Below are positions 2,202 to 63,240 of a stretch of DNA of 64,000 nt, piece by piece; the stretch's first letter is position 1; the number at the start of each line of letters is the position of its first letter. A program made the position numbers and the translations under genes. The notes beneath the pieces are model-generated. The model did no database searches, was not told the origin of the DNA, and was given only the letters and a program-made list of their open reading frames with translations. The stretch covers positions 186,001 through 250,000 of the forward strand of contig JAUIHI010000001.1 in the NCBI GenBank assembly GCA_030432295.1. Reading direction: 5' to 3'. This stretch comes from Anaerolineae bacterium (lineage in GTDB: Bacteria > Chloroflexota > Anaerolineae > Caldilineales > Caldilineaceae).

Positions 2202-2258
2202 TTGTATACACGGATAGGGTACAAAGCTATCCGTGTTCCTTTTAATCCGTGTATACAA
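2202..2258. repeat. Palindromic intergenic element, ACACGGAT family
   Basis: TTGTATACACGGAT (2202-2215) and its exact reverse complement (2245-2258) flank an inner copy of the CTATCCGTGT word. The same words recur at 21973-22000 and 53306-53391. Neither strand has a U-tract after the stem, so this is a repeat rather than an ordinary terminator, although it lies just downstream of the hisN-like gene. Confidence 0.75.
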
Positions 2259-2285
2259 TAATTCCTTGGTTCTGGCTGCGCCGCT

Positions 2286-3080
2286 TCAGGGATTCAGCAG
2301 CCCAATCACTTGGTCGTGGATCGTCCCGCAACTGGCGATAATCCCGCTGCCTGCCAGCGGATCCTCCCCCTGCCAGTTGGTGATGCGCCCGCCCGCGCCT
2401 TCGATCACCGGAATCAGTGCCATATAGTCCCACTCGTTCATCACCGGGTCGGTCATCAGATGCGCGCCGCCGTTGGCAACCAGCATATAGCCGTGACAGT
2501 CACCCCAGGTGCGGTAGCGCAGCACCCGCTTGCTCAGACTCTCAAAGGCCGGGCCGTTCTGATATTCGAAGACATTCCAGTGGTCGGAGGTGAGCAGCAC
2601 CGCATCCTCCACCCGCTGGCAGGGACTGACCCGCACGGCCTGGCCGTTGAGCCACGCACCCGATCCGTTGCCGATGAGCATATCCCGCACAATCGGCTGG
2701 TGGATGACCCCCAGAATCGGGCGTCCATTTTTGAGCAGCGCGATTAGTGTGCCAAAAAGATAGCTGTGGCTGATGAAGTTCTTCGTGCCGTCGATGGGGT
2801 CCAACACCCAGCGATAGTCGGCGTCGGGCTGATGCTCGCCGAATTCCTCGCCCAGAATGCCGTGGCTAGGAAAGGCGGCCTGGATACGCTGGCGCATCAA
2901 CTCCTCCGCGCCCCGGTCTGCAATCGTCACCGGCGATTCGTCGGCTTTCAGGTCCACCGCATAGCCCGTGCGAAAATAGCGACGGATCAACTCCCCGCTC
3001 TCCTCGGCGAGTTGGCGGGCAAAGTCCATCAGTTCTGGCAGGGCTGGTTCGTGGGCAGCCATAGATGCAAAGCCTTTCAT
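2286..3080 (-). CDS. hisN: Inositol-monophosphatase family phosphatase, probable histidinol-phosphatase
   Basis: This 264-residue protein has the full metal-binding set of the inositol monophosphatase superfamily: GEEFG at about 77-81, DPIDGT at 94-99 and EWD at 216-218. The stretch WGDCHGYMLVANG (about 192-204) is typical of the HisN branch, which removes phosphate from L-histidinol phosphate in histidine synthesis. No other his gene is nearby, so the substrate is inferred from family resemblance only; another sugar or inositol phosphate is possible. The start is uncertain. I chose the ATG at 3080. An ATG at 3062 (MAAHEP) would also keep the whole domain, and a TTG at 3122 opens the longest frame. 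The region upstream of 3080 reads cctcct, so no ribosome binding site settles the choice. Confidence 0.8.
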   Translation of the reverse strand: MKGFASMAAHEPALPELMDFARQLAEESGELIRRYFRTGYAVDLKADESPVTIADRGAEELMRQRIQAAFPSHGILGEEFGEHQPDADYRWVLDPIDGTKNFISHSYLFGTLIALLKNGRPILGVIHQPIVRDMLIGNGSGAWLNGQAVRVSPCQRVEDAVLLTSDHWNVFEYQNGPAFESLSKRVLRYRTWGDCHGYMLVANGGAHLMTDPVMNEWDYMALIPVIEGAGGRITNWQGEDPLAGSGIIASCGTIHDQVIGLLNP

Positions 3081-3129
3081 AGGAGGAAAAAGTTCTGTCG
3101 AAAAAAAATTGCAAAAGGCCAAAGTCTCC

Positions 3130-3225
3130 CGCAGAGGCGCGGGGGCGCAAAGAAAGTCAGGAGAGAAACCCGCTTTTATCAGAGTTCATCCGCGTTTATC
3201 AGTGGCGCAAAAGGCTTTTTACACT
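3130..3225. repeat. Intergenic repeat made of GCGCGGGGGCGC and TTTATCAG/CCGCGTTTATCAG words
   Basis: The sequence between the hisN-like gene and the next minus-strand gene is built from words that recur elsewhere in the window, such as the GAGACGCGGGGGC type at 22030 and the ctgataaaatctgcg type at 14080 and 43340. No open frame or terminator is evident. Confidence 0.5.
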
Positions 3226-3274
3226 GGATTCAAGAATGCCAGATTGGGTAGAGAAGGTCAAACAAGCGGGCGAC

Positions 3275-4840
3275 TCACTTGCCCGTAGGCAGACTCTCCA
3301 CCCGGACAATGCCTTTGCGGTTGAGGGTGAGCAGCGAAGATGTGTAGCGGGGTTTGGCATCTTTGCCACCCTCCATCACCGAGACCAGATGGACGTGATA
3401 GACTTTTTTGGCCCGCACCCACTGGATACGACCCTCCCGGAGCAGGGGCTTGCGCTGCACAGGATCAGCCATTTTGTGCAAGAAAGGGCGCACATCCAAA
3501 CGCAAAATATCGCTGACACCGGTCAGCGCCGGGCCCCCCGGAAAGATGCTCTCAAAGCGCTGGGAGAAAAGGGTGACGGATTTGGTGTAACAGATAATCG
3601 ATTCCTCCTGGCCGTTGCCGTCCAGCCCGGTGGCCTGCCCCTGGCGGCGCAGTTCCTGAGCGGCCAGGGGGACATCTGCCATCGGCACAAAATTGAACTT
3701 TTCGCGTAGATAGCCCAATTCGTTGCTGCGGTCGTAGGTTTCCAGGGTGGTACGTCTGTCGAACAGAAAATTGCGCAGCAGACGCACAGAGAGCAACCGG
3801 CCCACCTCTTTGATGCGGTCTTTGAACATATAGCCCACCACCAGCGCGATAAAGACGGGGAAAGTGAATGTGCCAAAGCGGGCCTGAAAATAGAAGGCAA
3901 CGACAGTGGCAAAGATCATCGAAACCCCGGCTGCCACGGCAAAAAGCAGTTGTTCCAGCGTGCGTCCCTCTGCTTCTACTGATGCCGAGAGGTAGAGGAC
4001 ATTGGATGTGAATTTTTTCAACGCCGACGAACGAAAGAGATACTCCTCGTTGTCCGAATCGGGCTGCAATTGGATCGAACAACCCAGCGCACTGCGATAG
4101 GCGGTTTCCTGTTCGATCAGCGCCTCCAACCTGGCCTGCAAGCGGCGCTTCTCGTCACCCGCGCTGTACTGCTCCACTAGCTGGTAGGCGGACAGATAGC
4201 TCTCTTCCAGCACCAGACTGATCGACTCTTCGGTCAGGCGATAGTCCTGGATCAGCCCAGGCGACGCATTGACCCGCTGTATCAACCCGACTACCCCCCG
4301 AAAGTAACTGGCGAAAGCCGAGACGTCCTCAATGTAGCGGTCCGCCTCGGTATTGACGTGGGCGGCGGGATCGGGCAAGGCGCGCCGGGAACGGGGATTC
4401 ATACGGCGCAGGCGACGGTCCAATCGACTGTTCAAAATCGCGCGCAGAAACTTCAGACTGGTGAGCACCCGTTTGCATTTCTGGGCATCCCGCTCCCATC
4501 CGTCCACACTCAGGATATTCTGCAACTGCACCAGCGGTGAGCGGGGCTGGGTGCGCAATGCTTGCAGGGAAAAGTCGGGCGTGCGCAAACGCACATAGTT
4601 TTGTGCCCGGCGGTAGAATTCCCGTTGGGAATAGACCCCGCTGTGGACTCCCAGACTTTGGGGCAGAAAAATATAGGTTGTGATCCGGTATTGACTCTTG
4701 CCAGATGGTTGCAAACGATAGAAATGCCTCATCTCCACCTGGAAGCGGTCATGCGCCAACATCCGTTGTTGGATAGTCTGTGCCACAAAACGCCTCTGCT
4801 TCCACAATTGACGGGCGCAGCCAGTGGCGTGCCCCTGCAT
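3275..4840 (-). CDS. Conserved-looking membrane protein of unknown family
   Basis: I do not recognise this 521-residue protein. The first 290 residues are soluble, rich in Arg and Gln, and predicted helical. Two hydrophobic segments follow, at about 298-320 (LLFAVAAGVSMIFATVVAFYF) and 326-340 (FPVFIALVVGYMF), joined by a very short loop. This makes a hairpin anchor with both large domains on the same side, probably the cytoplasm. The C-terminal 180 residues form a second soluble domain with scattered Arg and Asp and end in LPTGK. There is no signal peptide, no Walker motif and no protease motif. The gene stands alone between repeats. Reading-frame length and base use like those of its neighbours support a real gene. 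Confidence 0.7.
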   Translation of the reverse strand: MQGHATGCARQLWKQRRFVAQTIQQRMLAHDRFQVEMRHFYRLQPSGKSQYRITTYIFLPQSLGVHSGVYSQREFYRRAQNYVRLRTPDFSLQALRTQPRSPLVQLQNILSVDGWERDAQKCKRVLTSLKFLRAILNSRLDRRLRRMNPRSRRALPDPAAHVNTEADRYIEDVSAFASYFRGVVGLIQRVNASPGLIQDYRLTEESISLVLEESYLSAYQLVEQYSAGDEKRRLQARLEALIEQETAYRSALGCSIQLQPDSDNEEYLFRSSALKKFTSNVLYLSASVEAEGRTLEQLLFAVAAGVSMIFATVVAFYFQARFGTFTFPVFIALVVGYMFKDRIKEVGRLLSVRLLRNFLFDRRTTLETYDRSNELGYLREKFNFVPMADVPLAAQELRRQGQATGLDGNGQEESIICYTKSVTLFSQRFESIFPGGPALTGVSDILRLDVRPFLHKMADPVQRKPLLREGRIQWVRAKKVYHVHLVSVMEGGKDAKPRYTSSLLTLNRKGIVRVESLPTGK

Positions 4841-4945
4841 TCACAAGAACTCTAATGGATTCCACTATCCGCAAACTGGACAACTTCGGCCACTTTTGTT
4901 ACAAATACGCTGATTACCACCCACCACCTGACAGGAAGGCATTCG

Positions 4946-5629: not shown

Positions 5630-5634
5630 GCGTT

Positions 5635-5685
5635 TGGGGCAGGGAAATTGCCCATTCTCCGATCCCCTGCCCCCCTTCTTTTGTT
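5635..5685 (+). terminator. Hairpin terminator after the histidine phosphatase gene
   Basis: GGGGCAGGG just after the stop codon pairs with CCCCTGCCCC at about 5664-5673 and is followed by ccttcttttgttt. The T-rich tail is broken by Cs, so termination strength is uncertain. Confidence 0.55.
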
Positions 5686-5790: not shown

Positions 5791-5805
5791 AAATAACCGG
5801 GCTGT

Positions 5806-6774: not shown

Positions 6775-6789
6775 AAAAATATCTCCGAT

Positions 6790-7464: not shown

Positions 7465-7478
7465 CTATACCGGGACAA

Positions 7479-11113: not shown

Positions 11114-11116
11114 CCA

Positions 11117-13160: not shown

Positions 13161-13226
13161 AGCCGATAAACAAAAAGGGGGAGAAGACACATCGGTGTCT
13201 TCTCCCCCTTTTTTGTTTGTCGGCTA
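13161..13226. terminator. Bidirectional intrinsic terminator
   Basis: AAAAAGGGGGAGAAGACAC (13172-13190) and its exact complement (13195-13213) form a 19-bp stem with a 4-base loop and T-runs on both strands. The symmetry extends outward through AGCCGATAAAC and GTTTGTCGGCT. It separates the convergent isomerase and ABC ATPase genes. Confidence 0.93.
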
Positions 13227-14020: not shown

Positions 14021-14127
14021 TAGGACGCAGATGGCGCTGAAAAGATTGATTGACGCTGCGGTGTCCTGAGCTTGTCGAAGGGATAAAATCTGCGTAAATC
14101 CGCTGTTTCTGCGCCATCTGCGTCCTA
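14021..14127. repeat. Palindromic intergenic element, GGACGCAGATG family
   Basis: TAGGACGCAGATGGCGC (14021-14037) and its exact complement (14111-14127) are 17-bp arms around words such as ctgataaaatctgcg-like sequence. A cctgagcttgtcgaaggg word is also included. It sits inside the transporter operon. Related copies are at 31691, 43301, 45981 and 55195. Confidence 0.8.
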
Positions 14128-15154: not shown

Positions 15155-15283
15155 GATAATAGATAGTGGATATTGGGTAGTGAAGTTCGGGGGGATTGGA
15201 ATATTGGATTTGTAGTCAAGCCCAAGTGCTACTTCGTAGCAACCAACGCGGCTCTGCAAATATCCAATACCCAATACCTCATT
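15155..15283. repeat. Palindromic intergenic element, GGATATTGGGTA family
   Basis: Words ggatattgggta and ggaatattggatttg on the left are mirrored by gcaaatatccaatacccaatacc on the right. It lies between the permease and lipoprotein genes and runs into the permease stop. Similar words occur at 19170-19195 and 16730-16773. Confidence 0.65.
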
Positions 15284-16121
15284 TCCGCCAACGCAGATAA
15301 TAGTTTTCCAGCGCGGATATGCCGAGATAGAGCGTTTGGGCGATAACGACAAGGGCAAGGACGGCCACAAAGATCATCGGTGTGTCCAGCACACCCCGGC
15401 CCAGATTGATGAGAAAGCCCAGCCCCACATCAGCGCCCACAAACTCGCCCACTACCGCGCCCACAATCGCCAGAATCACACTCAGCTTCAACCCGCCAAA
15501 GAGAACCGGCAGGGCTGCGGGCAATTCCAGTTTGAAAAAGAGTTGGCTGCGGCTGGCGCGCAGGGAGCGCATCAGGTCGTGCAGGTCCGGGTCCACGCCG
15601 CGGATGCCGACGATTGTGCTGACCAGTGTGGGGAAGAAGACGATTATCCCGGTGATCAGCACTTTGCTCAGCAGGCCGTTGCCAAACCAGATGATCAGCA
15701 GGGGCGCAATCGCCACCACCGGCACAGTCTGGCTGGCGACGATATAGGGCGAGAGCAGCCGGTCCAGCGTCTGGCTCTTGCCCAGCAGATAGCCCAGAAT
15801 CAGTGCCAGGGAAACGCCCAGCAGCAGGCCCAGCACAATTTCCAGCAGTGTCACCTGCGCGTGTTTCCAGAGGATTCCGTTGGACGCCAGTGTGAGCGTC
15901 TTGCCGGCGACTGCCAGCGGGCCGGGGAGGATAAAGGCCGGATAGTCCTGCCAGCGCACCAGCCCTTCCCACAGGAGCAGAATACTGGCGACGACGAAGG
16001 GAAAGGTGACAGGCGCGGGGTAGCTGGCAACCCCGCGCAGCAGACCGGACGCCGAACGCCTGTTTGAACCTCTCTCGTCCCTCTCCTTTTGTATTGTTGC
16101 CAGAATCGTACCCTCCGCCAT
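15279..16121 (-). CDS. ribX: ABC transporter permease, probable RibX
   Basis: The 280-residue protein has about six transmembrane segments. A binding-protein-dependent permease EAA loop lies at about 184-205 (MRSLRASRSQLFFKLELPAALP-like), which contacts the ATPase. It belongs to the SsuC/ThiX-type permeases that pair with NMT1/SsuA-like binding proteins. It is the first gene after an FMN riboswitch and two terminators, so flavin shortage should switch it on together with the two genes downstream. The name follows the RibXY system described in Chloroflexi; riboflavin as substrate is inferred, not shown. Confidence 0.8.
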   Translation of the reverse strand: MAEGTILATIQKERDERGSNRRSASGLLRGVASYPAPVTFPFVVASILLLWEGLVRWQDYPAFILPGPLAVAGKTLTLASNGILWKHAQVTLLEIVLGLLLGVSLALILGYLLGKSQTLDRLLSPYIVASQTVPVVAIAPLLIIWFGNGLLSKVLITGIIVFFPTLVSTIVGIRGVDPDLHDLMRSLRASRSQLFFKLELPAALPVLFGGLKLSVILAIVGAVVGEFVGADVGLGFLINLGRGVLDTPMIFVAVLALVVIAQTLYLGISALENYYLRWRK

Positions 16122-16162: not shown

Positions 16163-16281
16163 AGATGGTGGAATTTTCAACGCAATGACGCAAAGGAGCA
16201 GAGACGCAAAGAAATCGCTTTTCTCTCTGTGCCTTTGCCTCTTTGCATCTTTGCGTTAAGAATTAGCCATTCCACCATCCC
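16163..16281. repeat. Palindromic intergenic element, GACGCAAAG family
   Basis: GATGGTGGAAT near 16164 and ATTCCACCATC near 16270 are the outer arms. Inside, aacgcaatgacgcaaagg and agagacgcaaag are mirrored by ctctttgcatctttgcgtt. Related cacgaagacacaaag elements occur at 59719-59772 and 63181-63240. Confidence 0.7.
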
Positions 16282-16456: not shown

Positions 16457-16523
16457 GTGGCGTGCAAAAATAGCCGTGCCGGGCGGACGCCAAAAGCGCG
16501 TGTTCACCCTGCACTGGATTGCA

Positions 16524-16657
16524 CCTTCTCTCATCCGGACTATACCGTCGGCGTCGGACTTGCACCGAACTCCTGCCTTGCGGCTCACGGGCTTTCCAGC
16601 AGCGCTGGATTACCGTCGATCGGGAATTGGGGTCGCCCCCTCACCCTGCCCCGAAGG
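16524..16657 (-). promoter_or_regulatory. FMN riboswitch (RFN element)
   Basis: Read on the minus strand, the conserved blocks appear in order: CCTTCGGGGCAGGGTGA, AATTCCCGATCGACGGTA, AAGCCCGTGAGC, GCAGGAGTTCGGTGCAAG, TCCGACGCCGACGGTA and AGTCCGGATGAGAGAAGG. Outer CCTTC and GAAGG close helix P1. This matches the RFN consensus, which binds FMN and normally shuts off flavin synthesis or uptake genes. The genes downstream form an ABC importer, so the switch most likely controls flavin uptake by attenuation at the terminators at 16421-16456 and 16302-16336. Confidence 0.95.
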
Positions 16658-16680
16658 TTCTTCTATTCAGTTGTGGGTAC

Positions 16681-19111: not shown

Positions 19112-19195
19112 AGTCGTCATCCGGGTCACCCACTGATTACTATTCACTGGTAACTGATAACTTACGTCAATATCCACTATCCAATACCAGTTTTT
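19112..19195. repeat. Intergenic repeat with ttaccagt/actggtaa and ggatattg words
   Basis: TTACCAGT and ACTGGTAA arms surround cactgattactattc, a word shared with the elements at 27856-27916 and 51640-51738. It is followed by atatccactatccaatacc, shared with the element at 15155. It ends right at the methyltransferase start. Confidence 0.6.
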
Positions 19196-21971: not shown

Positions 21972-22215
21972 TTTGTATACACGGATCAAAAGAAACACGG
22001 ATTGACTCAACTGCAAAAAGCCTCCAAACTCACCGCTGAGACGCGGGGGCACCGAGACGCGGCGGCGCGGAGTCTCGCGGAGCTTTTCTCTTGAATCACT
22101 CCGCGTTTCCTCCGCGTTCTCTGCGCCTCCGCGGTGAAATTGACCTTTTTGCAGTGGACTCCGGATTGCTTCTGCGAAAATCGGCGCAATCTGTGAAATC
22201 TGCGTTCCAAAAGCG
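21972..22215. repeat. Compound palindromic intergenic element
   Basis: A half copy of the GTATACACGGAT family (21975-22000) is followed by a palindrome. Its arms are CTGCAAAAAG (22011-22020)/CTTTTTGCAG (22145-22154) and CACCGC (22031-22036)/GCGGTG (22131-22136), enclosing gagacgcggg and tccgcgttctctgcgc words. A tail of ctgcgaaaatcggcgcaatctg type completes it. Confidence 0.7.
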
Positions 22216-22218: not shown

Positions 22219-22264
22219 AAAAAAGAGGGCGGGGATTCCAAAACGAATCCCCGCCCTCTTTTTG
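22219..22264. terminator. Bidirectional intrinsic terminator
   Basis: AAAAAGAGGGCGGGGATTC (22220-22238) and its exact complement (22245-22263) form a 19-bp stem with a 6-base loop and A/T runs on both sides. It lies between the convergent amylosucrase and RraA-like genes. Confidence 0.93.
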
Positions 22265-23017: not shown

Positions 23018-23142
23018 TTTGTTCTCCAATGGGGAAGGTGAAATGAGGAATGCAGAAGTTCGAATGCGGAACTTTCTACGTCGTCTGGCGACGATTGATG
23101 GGTATGGTACACCATTTCGCTGAAAATGGGTAGCGGAATTGC

Positions 23143-23199
23143 GGAAGTTAGAATGCGGAATGCGGTATCGCTCGTTCCGCATTCCGCATTCCAACTTCC
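23143..23199. repeat. 23-bp hairpin, TGCGGAATGCGG family
   Basis: The arms at 23143-23165 and 23177-23199 differ by one G-U-type mismatch and enclose 11 bases. The words gaatgcgg and ccgcattc repeat within each arm. It lies 10 bp beyond the nrdJ stop. Confidence 0.8.
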
Positions 23200-23208
23200 C
23201 CATTCAAA

Positions 23209-27855: not shown

Positions 27856-27916
27856 AGTAATCAGTGAACAGTCATCAGTCGGCGTATCTCCCACTGATGA
27901 CTGTTCACTGATTACT
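27856..27916. repeat. 24-bp perfect hairpin, AATCAGTGAACAGT family
   Basis: The arms 27856-27879 and 27893-27916 are perfectly complementary over 24 bp with a 13-base loop, 6 bp beyond the ftsZ stop. Together with the NrdR boxes it accounts for the 339-bp gap between ftsZ and nrdR. No U-tract follows on the minus strand, so termination is possible but unproven. Similar words occur at 19118 and 51640. Confidence 0.8.
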
Positions 27917-30619: not shown

Positions 30620-30718
30620 GGGTGGTTTGCTGGTTGATTCGTTGATTGATTGAGTAGGTGATTGGTTGGCCGTCGATGCCAGTCAACCAATTATCCGATC
30701 AACCAATCAACCAATTTA
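30620..30718. repeat. Palindromic element with GGTTGATT/AATCAACC words
   Basis: ggttgattcgttgattgattgag and tgattggttg on the left are mirrored by caaccaattatccgatcaaccaatcaacc on the right. It fills the gap between ftsQ and ftsA and reaches the ftsQ stop codon. A half copy occurs at 40694-40733. Confidence 0.7.
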
Positions 30719-31690: not shown

Positions 31691-31759
31691 GGGACGCAAA
31701 TAAAAACTGAAACAAAGATCAGTGCAGATCAATTCAAATCAGGAGAATCTGCGTCCCTC
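31691..31759. repeat. Palindromic element, GGACGCAGATG family
   Basis: gggacgcaaataaaaactga on the left is mirrored loosely by tcaggagaatctgcgtccc on the right. It separates ddl from ftsQ. Confidence 0.6.
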
Positions 31760-40550: not shown

Positions 40551-40735
40551 CAGCGCCGGTTGAGTAGGCGGGTGCTTTTCCCCGCCGTATCGAAACCAAG
40601 CGAGTCTACAAGCAATTTCGTATCGACCCGTTCGCTTGGTTTCGATACGCCTCGAAGACTCGGCACTCAACCAGCGCTCACTCACTTGTCTCGACCAACA
40701 AACCAATGAACTAATCAACCAGCCAACCAATCCTA
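40551..40735. repeat. Palindromic element, CGAAACCAAGCG family
   Basis: GTATCGAAACCAAGCG (40587-40602) and its exact complement (40633-40648) are nested within AGCGCCGGTTGAGT and ACTCAACCAGCGCT outer arms (about 40552-40678). A half copy of the aatcaacc family follows. A second, single-arm copy of the family lies at 56443-56501. It interrupts the dcw cluster between mraY and murD. Confidence 0.8.
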
Positions 40736-43300: not shown

Positions 43301-43389
43301 GGACGCAGATGACGCTGAAAAAGATGATTGCCGCTGATAAAATCTGCGTAATCTGTGGTTTCTGCGCCGCTTGCGACCTCTGCGTCCCG
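43301..43389. repeat. Palindromic element, GGACGCAGATG family
   Basis: ggacgcagatgacgctgaaaa on the left is mirrored by tttctgcgccgcttgcgacctctgcgtcc on the right, with gctgataaaatctgcgtaatctg in the middle. It separates ftsI from murF. It is nearly identical in wording to the copy at 14021. Confidence 0.75.
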
Positions 43390-43393
43390 CTCT

Positions 43394-45980: not shown

Positions 45981-46072
45981 ACTGATAAAAACTGAAAGAG
46001 TTGATCTGCGCTGATAAAAATCGGCGTCAATCATTTGTTTCTGCGTAATCTGCGTCCGCTGTTTGCGTCCGC
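45981..46072. repeat. Palindromic element, CTGATAAAAACTGA / CTGCGTCCGC family
   Basis: actgataaaaactgaaagagttgatctgcgctgataaaaatcggcg is followed by tttctgcgtaatctgcgtccgc. It shares words with the elements at 14021, 31691 and 43301, and lies between rsmH and the ftsL-like gene. Confidence 0.6.
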
Positions 46073-46074
46073 TC

Positions 46075-47754: not shown

Positions 47755-47794
47755 CTAAAAAGAGCGGATCAGCCACCTGGCTGATCCGCTCTTT
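47755..47794 (-). terminator. Intrinsic terminator of the phasin-like gene
   Basis: AAAGAGCGGATCAGCCA (47759-47775) and its exact complement (47778-47794) form a long stem followed on the minus strand by TTTTTAG. A second inverted repeat with AGAAG/CTTCT and ACTTTTT/AAAAAGT arms lies at 47803-47836. The region 47475-47858 otherwise holds only the mraZ regulatory sites. Confidence 0.9.
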
Positions 47795-50812: not shown

Positions 50813-51657
50813 CTATCACTCCTGAAGCATCCCTCATCTTCCTCAAACTGGGCGGCTCGCTCATCACCGACAAACGCCAGGCCGAGTCGCCCCGGCTGGA
50901 TGTGCTGGCGCGGCTGGCCCAGGAGATTGCGGATGCCCGCCGCCATAACCCGTCTCTGCAATTGGTCATCGGCCACGGCTCCGGCAGCTTCGGCCACATA
51001 ACCGCCCGCCGTTACGGAACCCGGGACGGCGTACACTCGTCGGAGGAATGGCAGGGCTTTGCCATCACCGCTGACGCCGCGGCCCGACTCAACCGGATTG
51101 TGACCGCCAGTTTATTGAGCGCTGACCTGCCTGTCTGGTCAATCCAGCCCGGCGCTACATTGCGTTGCGAAGATGGCCGGGTGGTGGCTGGCCCGGAGGA
51201 AACAGTGGGTCTGGCATTGGCGCGGGGGCTGATTCCGCTGGTCCACGGGGATGTGGCCCTGGACAGTGTGCGGGGTGGCACAATTGCCAGCACCGAAGAG
51301 ATCTTCGACTGGTTGGCCCGGACCCTTTCGCCCCAGCGTATCGTTTTAGCCGGGGAGGTGGATGGGGTTTTCAGCGCGGATCCCCTGCGCTTTCCCGATG
51401 CCAAGCCTATCCGGAAAATTACACCGGCCAGCCTGGCCAGCCTGAAAGCGGGTCTGGGTGGCAGTCACGGCACAGATGTAACCGGCGGGATGGCTGCCAA
51501 AATTGACCAGGCAATGGCGATGGCTGGTCGTGCGCCAGGGCTGGAAGTGATTATCTGCGGCGGGCTGCAAGCCGGGAATGTGGCCCGCTCCTTGCTGGGG
51601 GCGGCGGATTGGCCGGGGGCGGATTGGCCGGGGACGCGTGTGAGCAGTCAGCGGTAA
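50809..51657 (+). CDS. Isopentenyl phosphate kinase
   Basis: The 282-residue amino-acid-kinase-fold protein has LKLGGSLITDK (12-22), GHGSGSFGH with the catalytic His (55-63), and GGSHGTDVTGGMAAKI near the C-terminus. The pattern matches isopentenyl phosphate kinase, which makes isopentenyl diphosphate in the alternative mevalonate route of Archaea, and is also reported in Chloroflexi (Roseiflexus). The last residues include a tandem ADWPGADWPG caused by a DNA direct repeat and are unlikely to matter. Its start overlaps the selA stop, so the two are translated together, although their functions look unrelated. Confidence 0.88.
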   Translation: MTITPEASLIFLKLGGSLITDKRQAESPRLDVLARLAQEIADARRHNPSLQLVIGHGSGSFGHITARRYGTRDGVHSSEEWQGFAITADAAARLNRIVTASLLSADLPVWSIQPGATLRCEDGRVVAGPEETVGLALARGLIPLVHGDVALDSVRGGTIASTEEIFDWLARTLSPQRIVLAGEVDGVFSADPLRFPDAKPIRKITPASLASLKAGLGGSHGTDVTGGMAAKIDQAMAMAGRAPGLEVIICGGLQAGNVARSLLGAADWPGADWPGTRVSSQR

Positions 51658-51738
51658 TCAGTTGCCAGCAAACAGTTGGCAGTGGGATAGCGACGGCGCT
51701 ATTGTTCACTTTTCACTGGTGACTGTTGACTCCCTATA
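51640..51738. repeat. Imperfect palindromic element, AGTGAACAGT family
   Basis: gagcagtcagcggtaatcag and ttgccagcaaacagttggcagtggg on the left are mirrored loosely by ttgttcacttttcactggtgactgttgactc on the right. It relates to the element at 27856 and runs into the stop region of the kinase gene. Confidence 0.6.
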
Positions 51739-53305: not shown

Positions 53306-53391
53306 GAATTCTTTTTGTAAACACGGATGAGAAGAAACACGGATACACAGCTATCCGTGTTCTTTCCTATCTGCGTTTACAAAAAGAATTC
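53306..53391. repeat. 86-bp palindromic element, ACACGGAT family
   Basis: GAATTCTTTTTGTAAAC (53306-53322) and its exact complement (53375-53391) enclose a second dyad (aagaaacacggata and tatccgtgttcttt). It is the best-preserved copy of the family also seen at 2202 and 21975. Confidence 0.85.
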
Positions 53392-53438: not shown

Positions 53439-55196
53439 ATGTCCATTCAGTCACAGGACCGTTCCGGCGGACAACCCACATCTTTGCCGCCTGCCCAACA
53501 ATTCACATCTTCCCCCGCCCATCCCCCAACTACCAGCCGCCGCCATTCTGATGAATGCCCGGCTTGCCGCGGCCCTGTGCAGCCCGGCCAGGCGGTCTGT
53601 GTTCGCTGTGGCACGGTGCTGCACTCGGAATCAAAAGAGATTCGTTGCCGACACTGTGGAAAGAAGGGTTCCTCGGCCTATGCCCTTTGCCCCCACTGTG
53701 GACGGACACTGGCGGCGGCTCCGCCGATATGGCTCAGTTGGGGACTGCCTGGCGCGCTGGTCTTGCTCTTTGTGCTGGTGCTGGTCAGCCGGATGGAGAG
53801 TGGCCCTCTCGGGTGGCTGGGCCAGGGCGCGAGCGCTGGCGAGATAGCCGTCGAGAATCCTGTGTTGACCCCTGTGCGGAGCGAAGCCGATACGGCGAAC
53901 TCTCTGGAGATTGGGTTGGCGGATGTGGGATCGCCGCCCCCACCAGAAGGCGTCAGCGCGACCGGGGCCGAGGCCAATTTGGTCCTGGGGGTGGATGCTG
54001 CCACAGAGACTCCGACGTCCACATCCACATCCCAGCCCACAGAGACAGCCGAATCGACCGGGACGCCCACGGCCACTCCCCAGCCTACGGGCACGTCTAC
54101 GCCGTCGATGACCCCGACAGCCAGACTCACCTCCACAGTGGCCAGCCGCGTCTATACTGTGCAGGAAGGCGACACCGCCTTTTCGATCGCCAACCGTTTT
54201 CAGGTTACCGTCGCGGCGTTATTGCAAATCAATCAGCTTGCCCCCGTGCAGGCCCTGCAACTGGAACCGGGCACGAGTCTGGAAATCCCCGGCACAGGAC
54301 CGTTGGAGATTGAAGCGTCTGCGACCGTTACGTCCTCGCTCCAGATTGCCAATACGTCCAGCCTGACCGGGACGGCTACCCTCACGCCCACTGCCCAGGC
54401 CCTGCTGCCCGGCCAGCAGCTTTACACAGTTGCCGGTGGCGATACTTTTGTGGCCATTGCCCTGCGCTACAACGTCAGCACAGACGCGCTGATGGCCGCC
54501 AATGGGCTAACAATCGCCGATGCCAGGGAGCTGCAATTGGGCCAGCAGTTGATTATTCCTGCCACGGGCCAGCCAGCCTCCTCAACAGCGACAGCCACCC
54601 CAACCGCTGGCCTGCGCAAGTACACAGTGCAGGCGGGAGATACAATTGTGGAGATTGCGGCCCGCAACGGCATTTCGGCTAATCAGCTATTGGCAGCCAA
54701 CGGGATGACCGCGGCCCAGGCGCTCTCCATTCGTCCAGGGGATGAGTTGATCATTCCTCCCCCCGGCTATGTGCCGCCTACTGCTACCCCCCGGCCTACG
54801 GCCCGCCCCACAGCCACCCCTACGCCTACGCCCACACCCACCGCTTCGATTCGCCTGGACGCGCCCAGTCAGATCGACCCGGCCCAGGGCATCAATGTGT
54901 CGTGCAGTGGCGAGCAATTTGTGCGCTGGAATCCGGTCAATGGCCTGGCCCCAGACGACGAGTATGTGCTCTTTCTGGGCTATGTCAACTCTGCCCCGGA
55001 TGCGGCAGGCAATGTGCAGGTGGTGCCCCTGCTGGAACAGCGCACAGGGCAGCGCACCAACTGGCAGATGGACAACGGCTACTGCGGTGTAGCACCTCAG
55101 GCATTTGGCCGCCGCTGGCGCTGGTATGTGCAGGTATTTGCTGGCGACACGCCGGTCAGCCCGCCCAGCGCAACCTGGGAATTCACCTGGCGCTAG
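53439..55196 (+). CDS. Membrane-anchored zinc-ribbon protein with three external LysM domains
   Basis: The 585-residue protein starts with a cytoplasmic double zinc ribbon at about 39-90, with four CxxC pairs (ECPACRG, CVRCG, CRHCG and CPHCG). One membrane segment follows (about 96-115). The outer part has Thr/Pro/Ser-rich linkers and three LysM repeats, each starting with a YTV.GD.. motif, at about 238-286, 328-376 and 394-446. The C-terminal domain (468-585) is beta-rich with two Cys that could pair. LysM binds peptidoglycan, so the protein ties a cytoplasmic zinc module to the cell wall; partners are unknown. Confidence 0.85.
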   Translation: MSIQSQDRSGGQPTSLPPAQQFTSSPAHPPTTSRRHSDECPACRGPVQPGQAVCVRCGTVLHSESKEIRCRHCGKKGSSAYALCPHCGRTLAAAPPIWLSWGLPGALVLLFVLVLVSRMESGPLGWLGQGASAGEIAVENPVLTPVRSEADTANSLEIGLADVGSPPPPEGVSATGAEANLVLGVDAATETPTSTSTSQPTETAESTGTPTATPQPTGTSTPSMTPTARLTSTVASRVYTVQEGDTAFSIANRFQVTVAALLQINQLAPVQALQLEPGTSLEIPGTGPLEIEASATVTSSLQIANTSSLTGTATLTPTAQALLPGQQLYTVAGGDTFVAIALRYNVSTDALMAANGLTIADARELQLGQQLIIPATGQPASSTATATPTAGLRKYTVQAGDTIVEIAARNGISANQLLAANGMTAAQALSIRPGDELIIPPPGYVPPTATPRPTARPTATPTPTPTPTASIRLDAPSQIDPAQGINVSCSGEQFVRWNPVNGLAPDDEYVLFLGYVNSAPDAAGNVQVVPLLEQRTGQRTNWQMDNGYCGVAPQAFGRRWRWYVQVFAGDTPVSPPSATWEFTWR

Positions 55197-55285
55197 GACG
55201 CTGATGACGCTGAAAGCTGAAAGAAGTGATTGCCGCGGATAGAATCTGTGCAAATCATTTGTTTCTGCGTGAGTCTGTGTCCCGC
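55195..55285. repeat. Palindromic element, GGACGCTGATGACGCTGAAA family
   Basis: ggacgctgatgacgctgaaagctg is followed by ttgccgcggatagaatctgtg and tttctgcgtgagtctgtgtccc, the same order of words as at 43301. An extended -10 box TGcTACAAT near 55358 lies downstream and may serve the HEAT gene. Confidence 0.6.
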
Positions 55286-55416
55286 CTTCTTTGCTGATTG
55301 TCTTCGCAACGGCGTGGACGCGATTTGAATCTCCTGGCCGCGTACTTTTGTGGTATGCTACAATGGGTGACGCGTGCAACGGCGTATAGTTATCTTTGCT
55401 TTTTGAGGAATTGATT

Positions 55417-56442: not shown

Positions 56443-56501
56443 CGGAGCAGCGCCGGTTGAGCAGGCTGGGGCTGTTTTCCAGCCGTGTCGAAACCAAGCG
56501 G
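56443..56501. repeat. CGAAACCAAGCG family element, single arm
   Basis: agcgccggttgagcaggctgggg and gccgtgtcgaaaccaagcg match the left arm of the element at 40551. The preceding aaaaaaccgagtttttgg resembles sequence at about 8455. Confidence 0.6.
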
Positions 56502-56549
56502 GTCCCCTCTGAATTCCTGTTGAGCCGTTTTTTGTAGCGGAGTTATCCG

Positions 56550-56927: not shown

Positions 56928-56941
56928 CCATCGCATCCCCT

Positions 56942-57853: not shown

Positions 57854-57890
57854 AAACCACTAAGGCACGAAGACACAAAGAAGAGCGGAA

Positions 57891-58454: not shown

Positions 58455-58460
58455 CCCGGT

Positions 58461-59711: not shown

Positions 59712-59718
59712 ACTCAAT

Positions 59719-59772
59719 CACAAAGGCACGAAGACACAAAGCTGTTTTTCTTTGTGTCTTCGTGCCTTTGTG
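59719..59772. repeat. 23-bp perfect hairpin, CACGAAGACACAAAG family
   Basis: CACAAAGGCACGAAGACACAAAG (59719-59741) is mirrored exactly at 59750-59772 with an 8-base loop containing five Ts. It lies between the FecR-like and glycosyltransferase genes. Related copies are at 16163 and 63181, and half a copy at 57858. Confidence 0.9.
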
Positions 59773-59792
59773 GTTCAAATGGAAAAGCACAA

Positions 59793-61454
59793 ATGAAACG
59801 ATCTTTTCGCTACTGGCGTGTCGGATGGTTGGGGCTGGCATTGCTTCTCTTTCTGCTTCTGGCCGGCTACCAGTTGGGCTTGCCCGGTCTCCACTACGAC
59901 GAGGCCAAAGAGGCCGGCGTCAACGCGATGGAATTGCTGACCGGCGCGCCGGTCACCGCCTTTCGCGGGGCCACAGTCACCCTCTTTGGCACAGACCTGC
60001 CGTTGATGGTGCAGGACTACATCGGCGCACTCAACGTCTATCTGGCCCTGCCCTTTCTGGCCGTCACTGGCATCGGCGTCCCCAACCTGCGCTTTCTCGC
60101 CCTCGCGCTCGGCTTGCTCGCACTTCTCGCCCTGGAACGTTCCATCTCCGAATGGCTGGCCCTGGCACGAAACCAGACCGGCCCCGTGCCCATTTCCCTG
60201 GCCGGACTCTTTGCCGCCACCCTTTTGGCTGCCTCGCCCAGCTTTGTCTTCTGGCAGCGCCAGGGCATCTTCGTCACCAACGCCACCCTGCCCGCCACCT
60301 TTGCCGCGCTCTGGCTGACCCTGCGCTGGCTGCGCACAGGCTCGCCCCGCGCCCTTTGGGCAGCAGCCTTTGCCGCGGGTCTCGCCCTCTATGCCAAACT
60401 GCTGGCGGTCTGGGTCATCGGCCCTTTGGCCCTGCTGGTGGCGGGCTGGTGGCTGTGGCGGCGCTGGGGAAAAGGGGTGACGATCAGCCCCACCGTCATC
60501 CCCCATCCCCAAGTCACGCTGCCTCTCCTGCTGGGCGCAGCGGTGGCGGGGACGATCCCTCTGCTTCCCTTCCTGCTCTTTAACCTGCAAACTGGCGGTA
60601 CACTCGCCAGCGTCGGCGGCAACCTGGGCCAAAGCTACTACGGCGTGGACAACAGCGCCATCCTCGCCAACCTGCCCGTGCGCCTGGGGCAGATCGGCAC
60701 AGTCCTGCGCGGGGATCAGTTCTGGTATCTGGGCGGGCTGCACGCCAATGGCCTGGCTCCCTGGCTGGCTGGGGTGGCACTGTTGGTTGGTCTGCTCAGC
60801 CGGGCCGGGCGACGAGAACTGCTGCCGCCACTGCTGCTGGTTGCCCTGGCCGTCAGCGCCAGCCTCTTTACCGTCAGCGATCTTTTCGTCACCCACTACG
60901 CCCTGCTCCAGCCGTTGCTAGTCGGCCTCGTCGGAATTGCTCTGGCCCATCTCTACGAGCAGACGCGTAGCTGGCGCGGCCCGGTTCTGCTTCTGCCTGT
61001 CGCCCTTCTCGTGCTCTGGCTGGGCGGCGATCTGAGCGCGTCTCTGGCCTATCACCAGGACCTCACCCGTAGCGGCGGCCTGGCCGACCACTCGGACGCC
61101 ACCTATCACCTGGCCTATCACCTGCGCTACAACGGGCTGGGCGCACCCATCGCCCTGGATTGGGGGCTGGATGCGCCGATCCGTTATCTGAGCGAGGGCA
61201 CTGTCACGCCCATCGAACTCTTTGGCTACGATTCCCTGGTTGCGCCGGACAGCGACTTTGCCGAACGTCTCGCCCCTTTTCTCGACAACCCGGACAACGT
61301 CTACCTGCTCCACGCGCCCGGCCAGGAAATCTTCGCGGGGCGGCGAGAGGCTTTCTTTGCCCAGGCGCGACAGCGCGGGCGGGAGGCAACGCTGGAGGCC
61401 ACCTTTGCCCAGCGCGACGGGCAGGCGCTGGTCGAATTGTGGCGGTTGCGTTAG
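59793..61454 (+). CDS. Glycosyltransferase family 39 (PMT/ArnT-like) membrane protein
   Basis: The 553-residue protein has about eleven membrane segments. The first outer loop has GLHYDEAKEAGVN (about 30-42), where the Asp-Glu pair matches the catalytic acids of PMT-type enzymes that use polyprenyl-phosphate sugars. A later loop, around QDYIGALNVYLALPF, also fits. A soluble C-terminal domain of about 130 residues ends the protein (DWGLDAPIRYLSEG, then AERLAPFLDNPDN). The ATG at 59793 follows GGAAAAG; an earlier start at 59754 lies inside the hairpin repeat and was rejected. Confidence 0.82.
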   Translation: MKRSFRYWRVGWLGLALLLFLLLAGYQLGLPGLHYDEAKEAGVNAMELLTGAPVTAFRGATVTLFGTDLPLMVQDYIGALNVYLALPFLAVTGIGVPNLRFLALALGLLALLALERSISEWLALARNQTGPVPISLAGLFAATLLAASPSFVFWQRQGIFVTNATLPATFAALWLTLRWLRTGSPRALWAAAFAAGLALYAKLLAVWVIGPLALLVAGWWLWRRWGKGVTISPTVIPHPQVTLPLLLGAAVAGTIPLLPFLLFNLQTGGTLASVGGNLGQSYYGVDNSAILANLPVRLGQIGTVLRGDQFWYLGGLHANGLAPWLAGVALLVGLLSRAGRRELLPPLLLVALAVSASLFTVSDLFVTHYALLQPLLVGLVGIALAHLYEQTRSWRGPVLLLPVALLVLWLGGDLSASLAYHQDLTRSGGLADHSDATYHLAYHLRYNGLGAPIALDWGLDAPIRYLSEGTVTPIELFGYDSLVAPDSDFAERLAPFLDNPDNVYLLHAPGQEIFAGRREAFFAQARQRGREATLEATFAQRDGQALVELWRLR

Positions 61455-61496
61455 GCTATTGACGCTCTGGCGGGCAGGTGCTAGAATGAAGGCAAG

Positions 61497-62567
61497 ATGA
61501 GTGAAAAACAGGAAGTAACCACACCGAAACTTCTCGGCGAGAGTGTCCCCAAAGGCAGCGCAGAGCAGACTGTCGCCGCGGCCACAAGCCAGGCGGAAAC
61601 CGGCCCTGCGCTGAAGGCCTATGGCCTCTTTGCTATCTTTGCCCGACTCCTGCGCCCGGCTCTCACCGCGGCCATGGCCCTGCCCATTCTGTGGGGGCTG
61701 GCCCTGGCCCACTGGCACGGCGCGGAGTTGAACGGCTGGTCGATTGCCCTGCTGCTGATCGCCAACAGTGCCTTTTGTGTGGGACTGAGCCTGGCGGGCC
61801 AGTACGTAGATTTCCGGCGCTCCATCAAAAACGACCAGGCCGCCCTGGGCAGCGAACATTCTGTCGGGGCCGAGAGGCAATCCCATCCGCCCTTGCAGGA
61901 TGTTTTTCAGTTGTTGCATAGCCAACGGGTGCGGCCTGGGGCTGTGCGCAGCCTGATCTTTCTCTGCCTCTGGATCGCTATGCTGGCTTATGTTTGGCTC
62001 AGCCTATTGGTGGGCTGGCCTCTGCTCTTCTTTGGGGTCCTGAGTGTGCTGCTGGCTGTGGTTTCCCTGCTGCCTGTCATCCGCTATTCCCGCTGGCAGT
62101 GGCTGTTAGGCGATGCGGCGATTCTGGTGGCAGTGGGTCTGTTGCCCGGCCTCAGCGCCTATTACGCCCACCGGGAAGTCATCGACCGCTGGGTGCTGCT
62201 GGCGTCTGCTGCTCCTGCCGTGCTGGCCTGGCTTACTTTTATGGCCTACAATCTGCTCAGTTGGCGGCGGGATTGGCGTCTGCGCCGGGGCACGGCCATT
62301 ACTGTCTTTGGGCCGGAGCGCGCCCTGGACGGCGCGGCGGTGATGGGTGTGGCCTCCTTTACATCAGTGCTGCTGTTGATGGCTCTGGATGCGCTGCCCC
62401 TTTCCTCCCTGTTGGTGCTGGGTAGCCTGCCCATATTTCTGCGCGCCTTTACGCACATCAACCAAAAACCCCTGACCCACGCCGACGCTACGTATGTCAT
62501 CGACCGTTCCACCCAGGCTGCGATTTTGGCGGGACTGCTCTGGATGCTGGCTCTGTGGAATGGATAA
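61497..62567 (+). CDS. UbiA-like membrane protein with degenerate prenyltransferase motifs
   Basis: The 356-residue protein has a 40-residue soluble start and then about eight membrane segments spaced as in UbiA/MenA prenyltransferases. At the first Asp-rich loop, where NDxxD is expected, it reads LAGQYVDFRRSIKNDQ. At the second, where NNxRDxxxD is expected, it reads AYNLLSWRRDWRLRRGTAITVFG. Most Mg-binding acids are lost. It is therefore probably not a standard prenyltransferase; an altered activity or a transporter-like role is possible. It follows the glycosyltransferase by 42 bp. Confidence 0.65.
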   Translation: MSEKQEVTTPKLLGESVPKGSAEQTVAAATSQAETGPALKAYGLFAIFARLLRPALTAAMALPILWGLALAHWHGAELNGWSIALLLIANSAFCVGLSLAGQYVDFRRSIKNDQAALGSEHSVGAERQSHPPLQDVFQLLHSQRVRPGAVRSLIFLCLWIAMLAYVWLSLLVGWPLLFFGVLSVLLAVVSLLPVIRYSRWQWLLGDAAILVAVGLLPGLSAYYAHREVIDRWVLLASAAPAVLAWLTFMAYNLLSWRRDWRLRRGTAITVFGPERALDGAAVMGVASFTSVLLLMALDALPLSSLLVLGSLPIFLRAFTHINQKPLTHADATYVIDRSTQAAILAGLLWMLALWNG

Positions 62568-62649
62568 GAGGGGATTGGGGACTGGGGATCGGGGATCGGA
62601 ATTGCCTCTTCCCAGTCCCCGATTCCCAATCCCCAGTTCCTAATCCCTT
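62567..62649. repeat. Palindromic element, GGGGATTGGGGACTGGG family
   Basis: ggggattggggactgggg on the left is mirrored by cccagtccccgattcccaatcccc on the right, with ggggatcggggatcgg inside. It fills the gap between two plus-strand genes, so no terminator for the first is needed or apparent. Confidence 0.75.
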
Positions 62650-63168
62650 ATGTCCGAATTGACCCGCAAAGAATTCTATCAGTTGGCGATTGAGTGCCGG
62701 GAACGGGCGCTGGATTTGGCGCGCCACGACCAGCACCGGGTAGTCCCGGCTCAATGCGCTCTTTTCAACAGTTGGCTGGCCGAACTGATGCGCTATGAGC
62801 GGCTGGTTCTGAGCCTGGGGAAACTGGAGAGGGCAAGGCCCATCACCCGTTGGCATGTGATGGGGGCCACTTTTCTGCTCTGGCTGCTTTTTGTCTTTAT
62901 CTTTGGAAGTCAGATACCAACTACAGGCCAGCGGGTTCTCAGCTTCGCTCTGGCTGGTCTGCTGATTCTGATCTATTTTGTGCCCGAACGGCTCTACGGC
63001 ACGACGGTGGAATTGCTGGAGGGGAAGATGCTGCGGGTGGTGGAGACGCTGGAAAAGATTCTGCTATCCCAGGAGATGGGGTTCAGCGAAGCTGCCTTTT
63101 TCCAGGTGAAAGAGAATCTCCAGATCGCCCACGAGGAGTTGCGCCAGCAGATTCATCTGGCCCATTGA
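62650..63168 (+). CDS. Two-TM membrane protein of unknown family
   Basis: I do not recognise this 172-residue protein. A soluble helical start (1-65, Arg/Glu-rich) precedes two membrane segments, about 70-90 (FLLWLLFVFIFGSQI) and 97-112 (LSFALAGLLILIYFV). A cytoplasmic helical tail of 55 residues follows, with LLEGKMLRVVETLEKILLS and EELRQQIHLAH. The long amphipathic helices suggest a coiled-coil partner. Confidence 0.65.
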   Translation: MSELTRKEFYQLAIECRERALDLARHDQHRVVPAQCALFNSWLAELMRYERLVLSLGKLERARPITRWHVMGATFLLWLLFVFIFGSQIPTTGQRVLSFALAGLLILIYFVPERLYGTTVELLEGKMLRVVETLEKILLSQEMGFSEAAFFQVKENLQIAHEELRQQIHLAH

Positions 63169-63180
63169 CGGGGGCCACAA

Positions 63181-63240
63181 CCACGAAGGCACAAAGACAC
63201 GAAGAACAGCCTTTCTCTTTGTCTCTTTGTGCCTTCGTGG
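63181..63240. repeat. Hairpin element, CCACGAAGGCACAAAG family
   Basis: CCACGAAGGCACAAAGACACGAAG on the left and ctttgtctctttgtgccttcgtgg on the right are nearly perfect arms. It lies between the convergent two-TM and enoyl-CoA hydratase genes, where a bidirectional end signal would be expected. There is no U-tract. Confidence 0.85.

What the first reader, a model, noticed from the sequence alone, without database searches (positions are those of the whole stretch)
2202..63240. About 20 intergenic palindromic elements in several word families
Perfect or near-perfect arms of 14-24 bp recur between unrelated genes. The families are ACACGGAT (2202, 21975, 53306), GGACGCAGATG (14021, 31691, 43301, 45981, 55195), CACGAAGACACAAAG (16163, 57858, 59719, 63181), AATCAGTGAACAGT (19118, 27856, 51640), CGAAACCAAGCG (40551, 56443), GGTTGATT (30620, 40694) and single types at 23143 and 62567. 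Most have no U-tract, several sit inside operons, and some copies are compound, with one family nested in another. They look like mobile or amplified hairpins with an unknown mover, perhaps RAYT-like, or a system of mRNA end or stability signals.
Basis: seen in the sequence. Interest (0 to 1): 0.7.

Follow-up and report, generated by a model that had tools for sequence, protein, structure and literature searches.

The report
Interchangeable repeat-word hairpins at gene ends
Gene ends in this bacterium carry snap-back DNA hairpins, many built from short 7-8 letter words; at least one such hairpin also occurs in bacteria of many phyla, and related species can have different hairpins at the same gene end, so they look like swappable gene-end signals spread by an unknown route.

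Summary
The hairpins are real and genome-wide. In 848 kb of the host genome (a Caldilineaceae relative) a blind search finds 222 long palindromes against 14 in one resampled copy. They sit at gene 3' ends: 52 of 60 convergent spacers hold one, 43 exactly one, against 16 of 75 divergent spacers. By a strict test 33 of 192 arms are 7-8-nt (rarely 6, 9 or 10) tandem arrays. Two results are surprising. First, orthologous slots in same-genus species can hold different families: 5 of 7 convergent and 9 of 14 codirectional spacers with two or more hairpin-bearing genomes show at least one 'different' pair, though some of these are nested elements or drifted arrays. Second, the CACRAAGR hairpin occurs in at least 14 phyla among 80 listed loci. 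No target-site duplication and no REP tag were found; a link to Y1 transposases is undecided. Best reading: bidirectional, terminator-like 3'-end hairpins drawn from shared word families and replaced quickly; function is inferred from position, the mover is unknown. Mismatches show no G-U preference, which counts against strong RNA-level constraint on single pairs.

The parts
2199..2261 (.). ACACGGAT-family hairpin with further complementary words in the loop
   Evidence: (I14)
13172..13213 (.). canonical-type bidirectional terminator hairpin AAAAAGGGGGAGAAGACAC in a convergent spacer, for contrast
14021..14127 (.). GGACGCAGATG-family hairpin, arms 21 of 22
16172..16264 (.). GCAAAG-family hairpin, arms 20 of 24
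19118..19190 (.). CACTGATTACT-type single arm, no palindrome found (ends approximate)
21975..22002 (.). single-arm ACACGGAT element, no palindrome found
22220..22263 (.). canonical-type terminator hairpin AAAAAGAGGGCGGGGATTC in a convergent spacer
23140..23202 (.). GCGGAAT heptamer hairpin
27856..27916 (.). CAGTCATCAGT-family hairpin, arms 24 of 24
30631..30713 (.). GGTTGATT octamer hairpin, arms 15 of 16
31691..31757 (.). GGACGCA-family gapped hairpin (ends approximate)
   Evidence: z -3.8, no ungapped arms
40586..40649 (.). REP-like hairpin CGTATCGAAACCAAGCGA
40694..40733 (.). single-arm AACCAATC array, no palindrome found
43301..43390 (.). GGACGCAGATG-family element, fold not beyond background (ends approximate)
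   Evidence: z -2.0
45981..46074 (.). GACGCTGATAAAA-family element; similar in G405, other words in G403, 13-nt spacer in G400 (ends approximate)
   Evidence: z -2.0
47759..47794 (.). canonical-type terminator AAAGAGCGGATCAGCCA; same hairpin type in G405, G403 and G400, not detected at the cut-off in G404
51640..51730 (.). CAGTCAGC-type gapped hairpin (ends approximate)
   Evidence: z -3.0
53306..53391 (.). ACACGGAT-family hairpin, arms 34 of 40
55194..55301 (.). GGACGCTGATG-family element with many copies at about 80% in sister genomes
   Evidence: z -3.2
56449..56503. REP-like CGGTTGAG...CGAAACC element with many copies in sister genomes; does not fold
57858..57880 (.). single-arm CACRAAG array
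59716..59775 (.). CACRAAG hairpin, core arms 23 of 23; absent at the orthologous site in G405 and G404, present in G403
62571..62647 (.). GGGGAYY heptamer hairpin; G405 has longer arrays on both sides that the detector does not score as a palindrome
63179..63242 (.). CACRAAG hairpin in a convergent spacer; three other species have hairpins of three other word families there, one has none

Best explanation
The elements are gene-3'-end hairpins that do the job of bidirectional transcription terminators or mRNA 3'-end signals. Each is made of two head-to-head arms, many of them recurring words in imperfect 7-8-nt tandem; tandem arrays tend to be purine-rich on the 5' side of a spacer and pyrimidine-rich on the 3' side, whichever strand is read. 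When transcribed, the 5' arm folds back on the pyrimidine-rich 3' arm, whose RNA:DNA hybrid is weak (recalled hybrid thermodynamics), so a hairpin without a U-tract could still release RNA. Which family fills a slot matters little: the slot is under selection, while word hairpins arrive, expand, decay and are replaced faster than the flanking genes diverge. At least one word is shared across many phyla. Shown: positions, one-per-slot statistics, array periods and polarity, different families at orthologous slots, empty sites, cross-phylum words. Inferred: termination, selection on the slot, and the route of spread.
For: Position: 199 palindromes lie 126 codirectional, 50 convergent, 12 divergent, 10 in genes, 1 at an edge, whereas random positions are 86.5% in genes; median distance to the stop codon 20 and 15 nt. 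One slot per convergent spacer: 52 of 60 occupied, 43 singly (length-weighted Poisson 17.3), empty 8 against 28.2; divergent 16 of 75 as Poisson; Fisher p 1e-14. The 60 slots by first hairpin: 24 named word or REP families, 10 canonical T-rich, 18 other (several with A-runs, possibly canonical), 8 none. Different families at orthologous slots: convergent 17 different, 6 same pairs; at window 63169-63258 four species carry four families. Empty sites with both flanks conserved. Periods 7 and 8 make 74 of 77 spacer arrays; purine-rich 26 of 39 in the left half, 5 of 38 in the right half, p 2e-6. Words across phyla.
Against: No transcript data. In codirectional spacers, mismatches turned to the transcript are A-C 39, G-U 35, other 32 in the host and G-U 26, A-C 23, other 3 in the cross-phylum set; RNA-level selection should favour G-U. 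Only 26 of 226 ends have a U-tract. Outside the host the position bias is weaker: of 108 CACRAAG hairpins 45 codirectional, 17 convergent, 6 divergent, 25 inside crude ORFs, 15 at edges. The slot is not always kept: 12 of 36 convergent pairs are present/absent. The switching count is clustered: 12 of the 17 different convergent pairs come from two spacers, 2 from a nested element inside a loop whose outer hairpin is of the same family, and 2 may be diverged canonical terminators. Gene calls came from a simple script.
Confidence: 0.52

Rival explanations
1. REP elements moved by RAYT (TnpA-REP, Y1) transposases: the hairpins are non-autonomous single-strand transposons.
For: Some host families look like REPs (GTAGGGGCGCTGCTTGCTGCGCCC starts with GTAG). 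Y1_Tnp gives 7 matches in the host and is in 13 of 14 distinct word-carrying genomes against 6 of 12 CACRAAG-free ones, p 0.026. No target duplication fits single-strand transposition. Published REPs also lie 3' of genes (PMC3733652, abstract).
Against: CACRAAG hairpins show no unpaired tag (at most 0.20 bits at any position of 214 flanks) and have variable ends. Outside the host's genus the Y1 difference is 8 of 9 against 6 of 12, p 0.16; G129 has 59 CACRAAG matches and no Y1, though it is 82% complete; Y1_Tnp also covers IS200/IS605 (recalled). Arrays can grow unequally on the two sides (G405 at 62568).
Confidence: 0.15
2. Neutral microsatellite-like arrays: 7-8-mer arrays grow by slippage in spacers, palindromes arise by template switching, and position reflects only where insertions are tolerated.
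For: Single-arm arrays with the same periods exist outside palindromes (39 of 3670 24-mers against 3.8 shuffled). Mismatch spectrum looks neutral. Array lengths vary between species. Arm covariation is weak.
Against: Single occupancy of convergent spacers, while divergent spacers, mostly over 200 nt, are at the Poisson level. Slippage alone cannot give the same word in 14 phyla. Polarity by spacer half.
Confidence: 0.2
3. mRNA 3'-end stabilisers or attenuators rather than terminators, as proposed for REPs.
For: Many sit between codirectional genes, 156 of 383 spacers, close to the next start, median 70 nt; most lack a U-tract.
Against: Convergent ends are the most strongly filled, and canonical T-rich hairpins share that slot, which points to termination.
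Confidence: 0.18
4. DNA uptake words: inverted uptake sequences act as terminators, as in Neisseria, and uptake specificity spreads them between species.
For: Inverted word pairs at gene ends and sharing between species fit this scheme (recalled; Neisseria papers seen only in the listing).
Against: Many unrelated words per genome. The test for single copies inside genes was inconclusive.
Confidence: 0.05

Closest known systems
G-rich heptamer repeats GGGNATC / GGGGA(C/T)T of Xanthomonas and Nostoc (PMC4692102, abstract and passages)
   Same: Heptamer arrays in spacers; [quoted passage not shown] underrepresented between divergent ORFs; 70 to 75 inverted pairs in two xanthomonads. The GGGGAYY family here has the same unit.
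   Different: Here other, non-G-tract words (CACRAAGR, ACACGGAT, GTGAAAC, CAGTGATC) occur at gene ends too, at least one word spans many phyla, and the family at a slot can differ between species; between the two Xanthomonas species the repeat type was usually preserved.
TAACTGA direct repeats of Beggiatoaceae, Cyanobacteria, Bacteroidetes (PMC4679880, abstract and passages)
   Same: Intergenic heptamer arrays shared between phyla; horizontal transfer suspected, 'no mechanism is evident'.
   Different: In the Beggiatoaceae genome mostly just upstream of start codons and with one inverted repeat; here 3' ends and hairpins.
REP elements, GTAG and CGTC super-families (PMC3733652, abstract)
   Same: Small extragenic palindromes, high copy, 3' of genes, between codirectional and convergent ORFs, in 8 phyla.
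   Different: REPs have a tag, and GTAG REPs a proposed RAYT mover; CACRAAG hairpins have no such tag, and their arms are tandem word arrays.
Cyanobacterial STRR heptamers (Mazel and colleagues, recalled, not read)
   Same: Recalled units CCCCRRT and CAACAGT resemble two families here.
   Different: Recalled as tandem repeats of heterocystous cyanobacteria, not as a multi-family hairpin system; from memory.

Membership tests
REP element | short extragenic palindrome in high copy | tested here: met
REP element | unpaired GTAG or CGTC tag at one end | tested here: not met
   CACRAAG family only: 214 flanks, at most 0.20 bits per position; a separate host family GTAGGGGCG does begin with GTAG; other word families not tested
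REP element | association with a RAYT (Y1) gene | tested here: inconclusive
   PF01797 in 21 of 28 handles, which are 26 distinct genomes (19 with a match); 13 of 14 word-carrying against 6 of 12 CACRAAG-free, p 0.026, p 0.16 outside the host's genus
MITE with DDE transposase | target-site duplication | tested here: not met
   direct flank repeats near chance, 199 host and 104 cross-phylum hairpins; in the host 4-nt repeats 3 against 0.9 and 5-nt 1 against 0.2
Intrinsic terminator | long stable hairpin soon after the stop codon | tested here: met
   fold energies for window sites
Intrinsic terminator | U-tract after the hairpin | tested here: not met
   26 of 226 oriented ends with >=6 T in 10 nt
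Intrinsic terminator | terminates transcription | not testable with these tools
   no RNA data
G-rich heptamer repeats (PMC4692102) | 7-nt unit in tandem, intergenic, at gene ends | tested here: met
   GGGGAYY family at 62571-62647 and elsewhere
G-rich heptamer repeats (PMC4692102) | G-tracts able to form G4 | tested here: not met
   CACRAAGR, ACACGGAT and GTGAAAC words hold no run of three G (sequence); the GGGGAYY family does
DNA uptake sequence | single words enriched inside genes | tested here: inconclusive
   the reversed-word control is distorted by codon usage
Rfam RNA family | match above gathering score | tested here: not met
   window only; the one match is an FMN riboswitch

The most novel reading that the evidence does not exclude
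A phylum-spanning class of mobile hairpins assembled from a small vocabulary of 7-8-nt words, moved by an undescribed machine (no target duplication, no REP tag, few viral copies seen) that places them at gene 3' ends, where cells use them as interchangeable bidirectional terminators; the same word has spread through at least 14 phyla.
Probability: 0.25. Interest if true: 0.9.

Novelty: new variant of a known kind. Interest (0 to 1): 0.7.

Why it matters
If the slots are real, a genome can end many of its genes with signals that are swapped between species of one genus while the function stays, which would make terminators a fast-evolving, exchangeable part of the genome. A word shared across phyla calls for a mover or an exchange route that is not known. 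Isolated reports on heptamers in Xanthomonas, Nostoc and Beggiatoaceae could become cases of one phenomenon.

Tried and rejected
Target-site duplications: none clearly above chance. No match of one 60-base hairpin in plasmid or phage records, but the low-complexity filter weakens this. Common flanking DNA: 55 of 6328 pairs of the 113 loci share DNA at E <= 1e-10, several of the longest between same-named relatives; titles of L140-L172 were not listed. Strong arm covariation: a first count of 339 of 433 was inflated by the 85% identity filter; later tests gave 121 of 213 against 112.8 and 264 of 449 against 225, so only weak covariation remains; in the host 29 of 46 against 23.8 is not significant. 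Y1 transposases: I first read as no association; recounting distinct genomes gave 13 of 14 against 6 of 12, so I now call it undecided and raised that rival from 0.12 to 0.15 and lowered my own reading from 0.55 to 0.52. Two-word co-occurrence in Chloroflexota: 19 of 40 CACRAAG-positive against 9 of 40 negative genomes that I picked by hand, p 0.034, confounded by kinship; G309 has 101 CACRAAG and no second word. Coding-region enrichment as a test of uptake words: inconclusive. Literature: 0 papers hold any of six exact words; the listings show no title on cross-phylum word hairpins or family switching, but only six papers were opened, five at abstract or passage level for comparison; subscription journals are mostly not held.
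Full report
WHERE IT IS. The window is G000:C16:186001-250000 of a 6.72 Mb genome in 61 contigs. Two genomes named in another collection, Caldilineaceae bacterium ACE_CHL8 (behind L106) and the record titled Litorilinea aerophila TH-08apr19-264 (behind L109), give the same places as the anonymous same-genus genomes G404 and G403, so the host lies, by depositors' names, in or near Caldilineaceae, Chloroflexota.

THE OBSERVATION. A blind search of 848,382 bp (all of contig C16, parts of C45 and C39) finds 222 palindromes with arms of 15 or more at 85% or more, against 14 in one resampled copy. CACRAAGRCACRAAGR occurs 131 times in the genome with 0 for the reversed pattern; TTTGTATACACGGAT 88 times with 0.

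ANATOMY. Among 192 arms of 16 or more, 33 match themselves at 75% or more at some shift, against 2.9 for shuffled arms (maximum 8), mostly at 7 (16) and 8 (12); none of 21 canonical arms that start AAAA does. So strict tandem arms are a sixth of the palindromes; the rest are recurring words without strict periodicity, REP-like or canonical. In the 848 kb, 77 tandem arrays of period 6 to 9 lie in spacers: 42 of period 7, 32 of period 8, 2 of 9, 1 of 6. Arrays in the left half of a spacer are purine-rich in 26 of 39 cases, in the right half in 5 of 38; outside palindromes 15 of 21 and 3 of 23. Arms thus behave as polar modules that also occur singly, as in G403 at window 62568-62649, where a (GGCGACT)n array has no partner, while G405 has long arrays on both sides with different unit variants.

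POSITION. With a simple dicodon gene caller (650 genes, about 86.5% coding), 199 palindromes fall 126 codirectional, 50 convergent, 12 divergent, 10 in genes, 1 edge. With a slightly lower threshold, 52 of 60 convergent spacers of 30 nt or more hold a hairpin, 43 exactly one; a length-weighted Poisson expects 28.2 empty and 17.3 single. Divergent spacers, 16 of 75, match Poisson; codirectional spacers 156 of 383. By first hairpin the 60 slots hold 24 named word or REP families, 10 canonical T-rich, 18 other and 8 none; some 'other' and one GGGGAYT case start with A-runs and may be canonical. Among the eight empty spacers several show single arrays or folds missed by the cut-off (sequences printed). 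E. coli K-12, 50 kb, same scripts: 0 palindromes of 15 or more; at the lower cut-off 2 of 5 convergent, 0 of 14 codirectional and 0 of 7 divergent spacers.

DIFFERENT FAMILIES AT THE SAME SLOT. Orthologous spacers were cut out of four same-genus species between conserved gene ends (69-92% identity in the first region; 51 spacers in five regions). Convergent, 36 pairs from 9 spacers: 17 both present and different, 6 both present and same, 12 present/absent, 1 none. Codirectional, 159 pairs from 32 spacers: 17 different, 16 same, 49 present/absent, 77 none. Divergent, 29 pairs from 10 spacers: 4 different, 0 same, 8 present/absent, 17 none. Pairs within a spacer are not independent. By spacer, among those with hairpins in two or more genomes, at least one different pair occurs in 5 of 7 convergent, 9 of 14 codirectional and 2 of 2 divergent. 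The automatic rule errs both ways: C45:165401 (both CACRAAG) scores as different; C16:394938 is different only because G404 has another element inside the loop of a GTGAAAC-type hairpin; at C45:31349 diverged canonical hairpins may count as different; TATTGGG and GGGGATT words may be one drifting array. Clear cases remain: window 63169-63258 has CACRAAG in G000, a CAGTGAACAGTCATCAGT hairpin in G405, GGTGATTGGGTGAT in G403, GTGAAACGTGAG in G400 and none detected in G404; C45:234323 has a canonical terminator in G000 and three unrelated hairpins in G405, G404 and G403; C45:169863 and C45:37880 are codirectional examples. By contrast the canonical hairpin at 47759 is of the same type in G405, G403 and G400. 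Empty sites: window 59712-59828 is 117 nt with the hairpin in G000 and 60 nt without in G405; G405 carries a hairpin just after the stop codon at C45:168773 where G000 has none.

ACROSS PHYLA. From the titles of the 80 listed, with phylum placement from my own knowledge of the names, I count 14 phyla (Pseudomonadota, Nitrospirota, Chloroflexota, Acidobacteriota, Sumerlaeota, Planctomycetota, Verrucomicrobiota, Desulfobacterota, Bacteroidota, Chlamydiota, Latescibacterota, Elusimicrobiota, Armatimonadota, Cyanobacteriota); three loci bear no phylum name and five are of the host's own genus. Most are MAGs, but titles without a MAG mark include Kouleothrix aurantiaca, Desulfonema magnum (complete chromosome), Methylobacter tundripaludum, Sphingomonas changbaiensis, Azospirillum and an Oscillatoriales, four phyla, so binning errors cannot explain all of the spread. 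By hand arithmetic with equal base frequencies (no call) about 1e-4 matches are expected by chance in 257 Gb. Lineages add their own palindromic ends (TTCAC...GTGAA, AATGC...GCATT). Within Chloroflexota the word is patchy: 40 of 400 genomes including the host, against 7 reversed-pattern matches in 6 genomes. A second word, RCRGATGAACRCRGAT, is in 10 of 20 CACRAAG genomes, 8 of 18 without the host's genus, with 0 control hits; three of the eight have one or two matches only, while an Acidobacteria MAG has 203 and Desulfococcaceae HSG8 67. Blind searches of 20 stretches from eight of these genomes find further word hairpins: (TTGAAAC)n in Desulfonema magnum, (AAATGAC)n, (GATTGNG)n and (GAAGGCA)n in an Acidobacteria MAG, TAACTGC in Oscillatoriales; other stretches hold few. 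Of 63 arms there 15 are tandem against 0.7 shuffled; six of the 63 are from two genomes of the host's genus, and none of those six reaches 0.75 in the table.

RESULTS THAT CUT THE OTHER WAY. If each pair were held by RNA folding, G-U should outnumber A-C. It does not: 35 against 39 in the host, 26 against 23 across phyla. Covariation at the degenerate R/Y sites is weak (264 of 449 against 225) or absent (121 of 213 against 112.8). The word itself seems kept, each arm on its own, but the cross-phylum set was found by the word, so this is partly by construction. In other phyla the 3'-end bias is milder and 25 of 108 hairpins fall inside crude ORFs. These facts suit young, fast-replaced elements whose folding is robust to single mismatches, and they would also suit neutral arrays.

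MECHANISM. I take the slot statistics and the sharing of slots with canonical terminators as the best evidence for a role at transcript ends in both directions. The polarity, purine-rich then pyrimidine-rich on either strand, is what a hairpin without a U-tract would need, because a pyrimidine RNA:purine DNA hybrid is weak; this step is inference from recalled physics. How the words move is not known: no duplication, tag or common flank was found, and the viral scan gave 7 stretches. Y1 transposases are commoner in the word-carrying genomes examined (13 of 14 against 6 of 12), which is confounded by kinship and includes all Y1 types; it leaves a RAYT-like mover possible. Natural transformation with recombination between like hairpins is possible and untested.

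KNOWN WORK. See Closest known systems. Heptamer arrays at gene ends are published for G-rich units (PMC4692102), and a cross-phylum heptamer with suspected transfer for TAACTGA (PMC4679880). A 2026 survey of perfect inverted repeats in 118,019 genomes reports strong enrichment after transcription ends in bacteria (PMC13155455, passages); a stem-loop survey of 40 genomes found clusters in 29 and 92 families (PMC2267715, abstract). None of the abstracts and passages seen describes one word shared over many phyla as hairpins or different families at orthologous slots.

Noticed in passing
window 16519-16662 (-): FMN riboswitch (RF00050, 86.9 bits); the GCAAAG word hairpin at 16172-16264 lies between it and the called start of the minus-strand gene 15279-16121, so a word hairpin may sit in a riboswitch leader.
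   Followed up: no
window 51603-51633: About two perfect copies of a 15-nt unit GGCGGATTGGCCGGG near the 3' end of an ORF, just upstream of a word element.
   Followed up: no
G404 orthologue of G000:C16:394938-395088: An element with inverted ends AGTAACTGTCCG sits inside the loop of a GTGAAACG-type hairpin in G404, an apparent insertion into a word hairpin.
   Followed up: partly
G000:C16:409004-409085 and orthologues: Pyrimidine-rich heptamer arrays (CGCAAYT)n directly upstream of a start codon are kept in G000, G404 and G400 while the element upstream of them differs.
   Followed up: partly
G000:C45:233122-233220: A GTAG-type REP lies between two genes whose orthologues in G404 and G400 have a spacer of -1 nt, so the REP seems to have split a coupled gene pair.
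   Followed up: partly
G000:C16:336723-337224: Three copies of a 17-nt-armed palindrome CCCCCRCCTCTCCCAGC spaced 218 bp apart.
   Followed up: no
G403/G432 and G404/G431: Anonymous same-genus genomes and genomes behind named loci L109 and L106 give identical places, so they are the same assemblies and must not be counted twice.
   Followed up: yes
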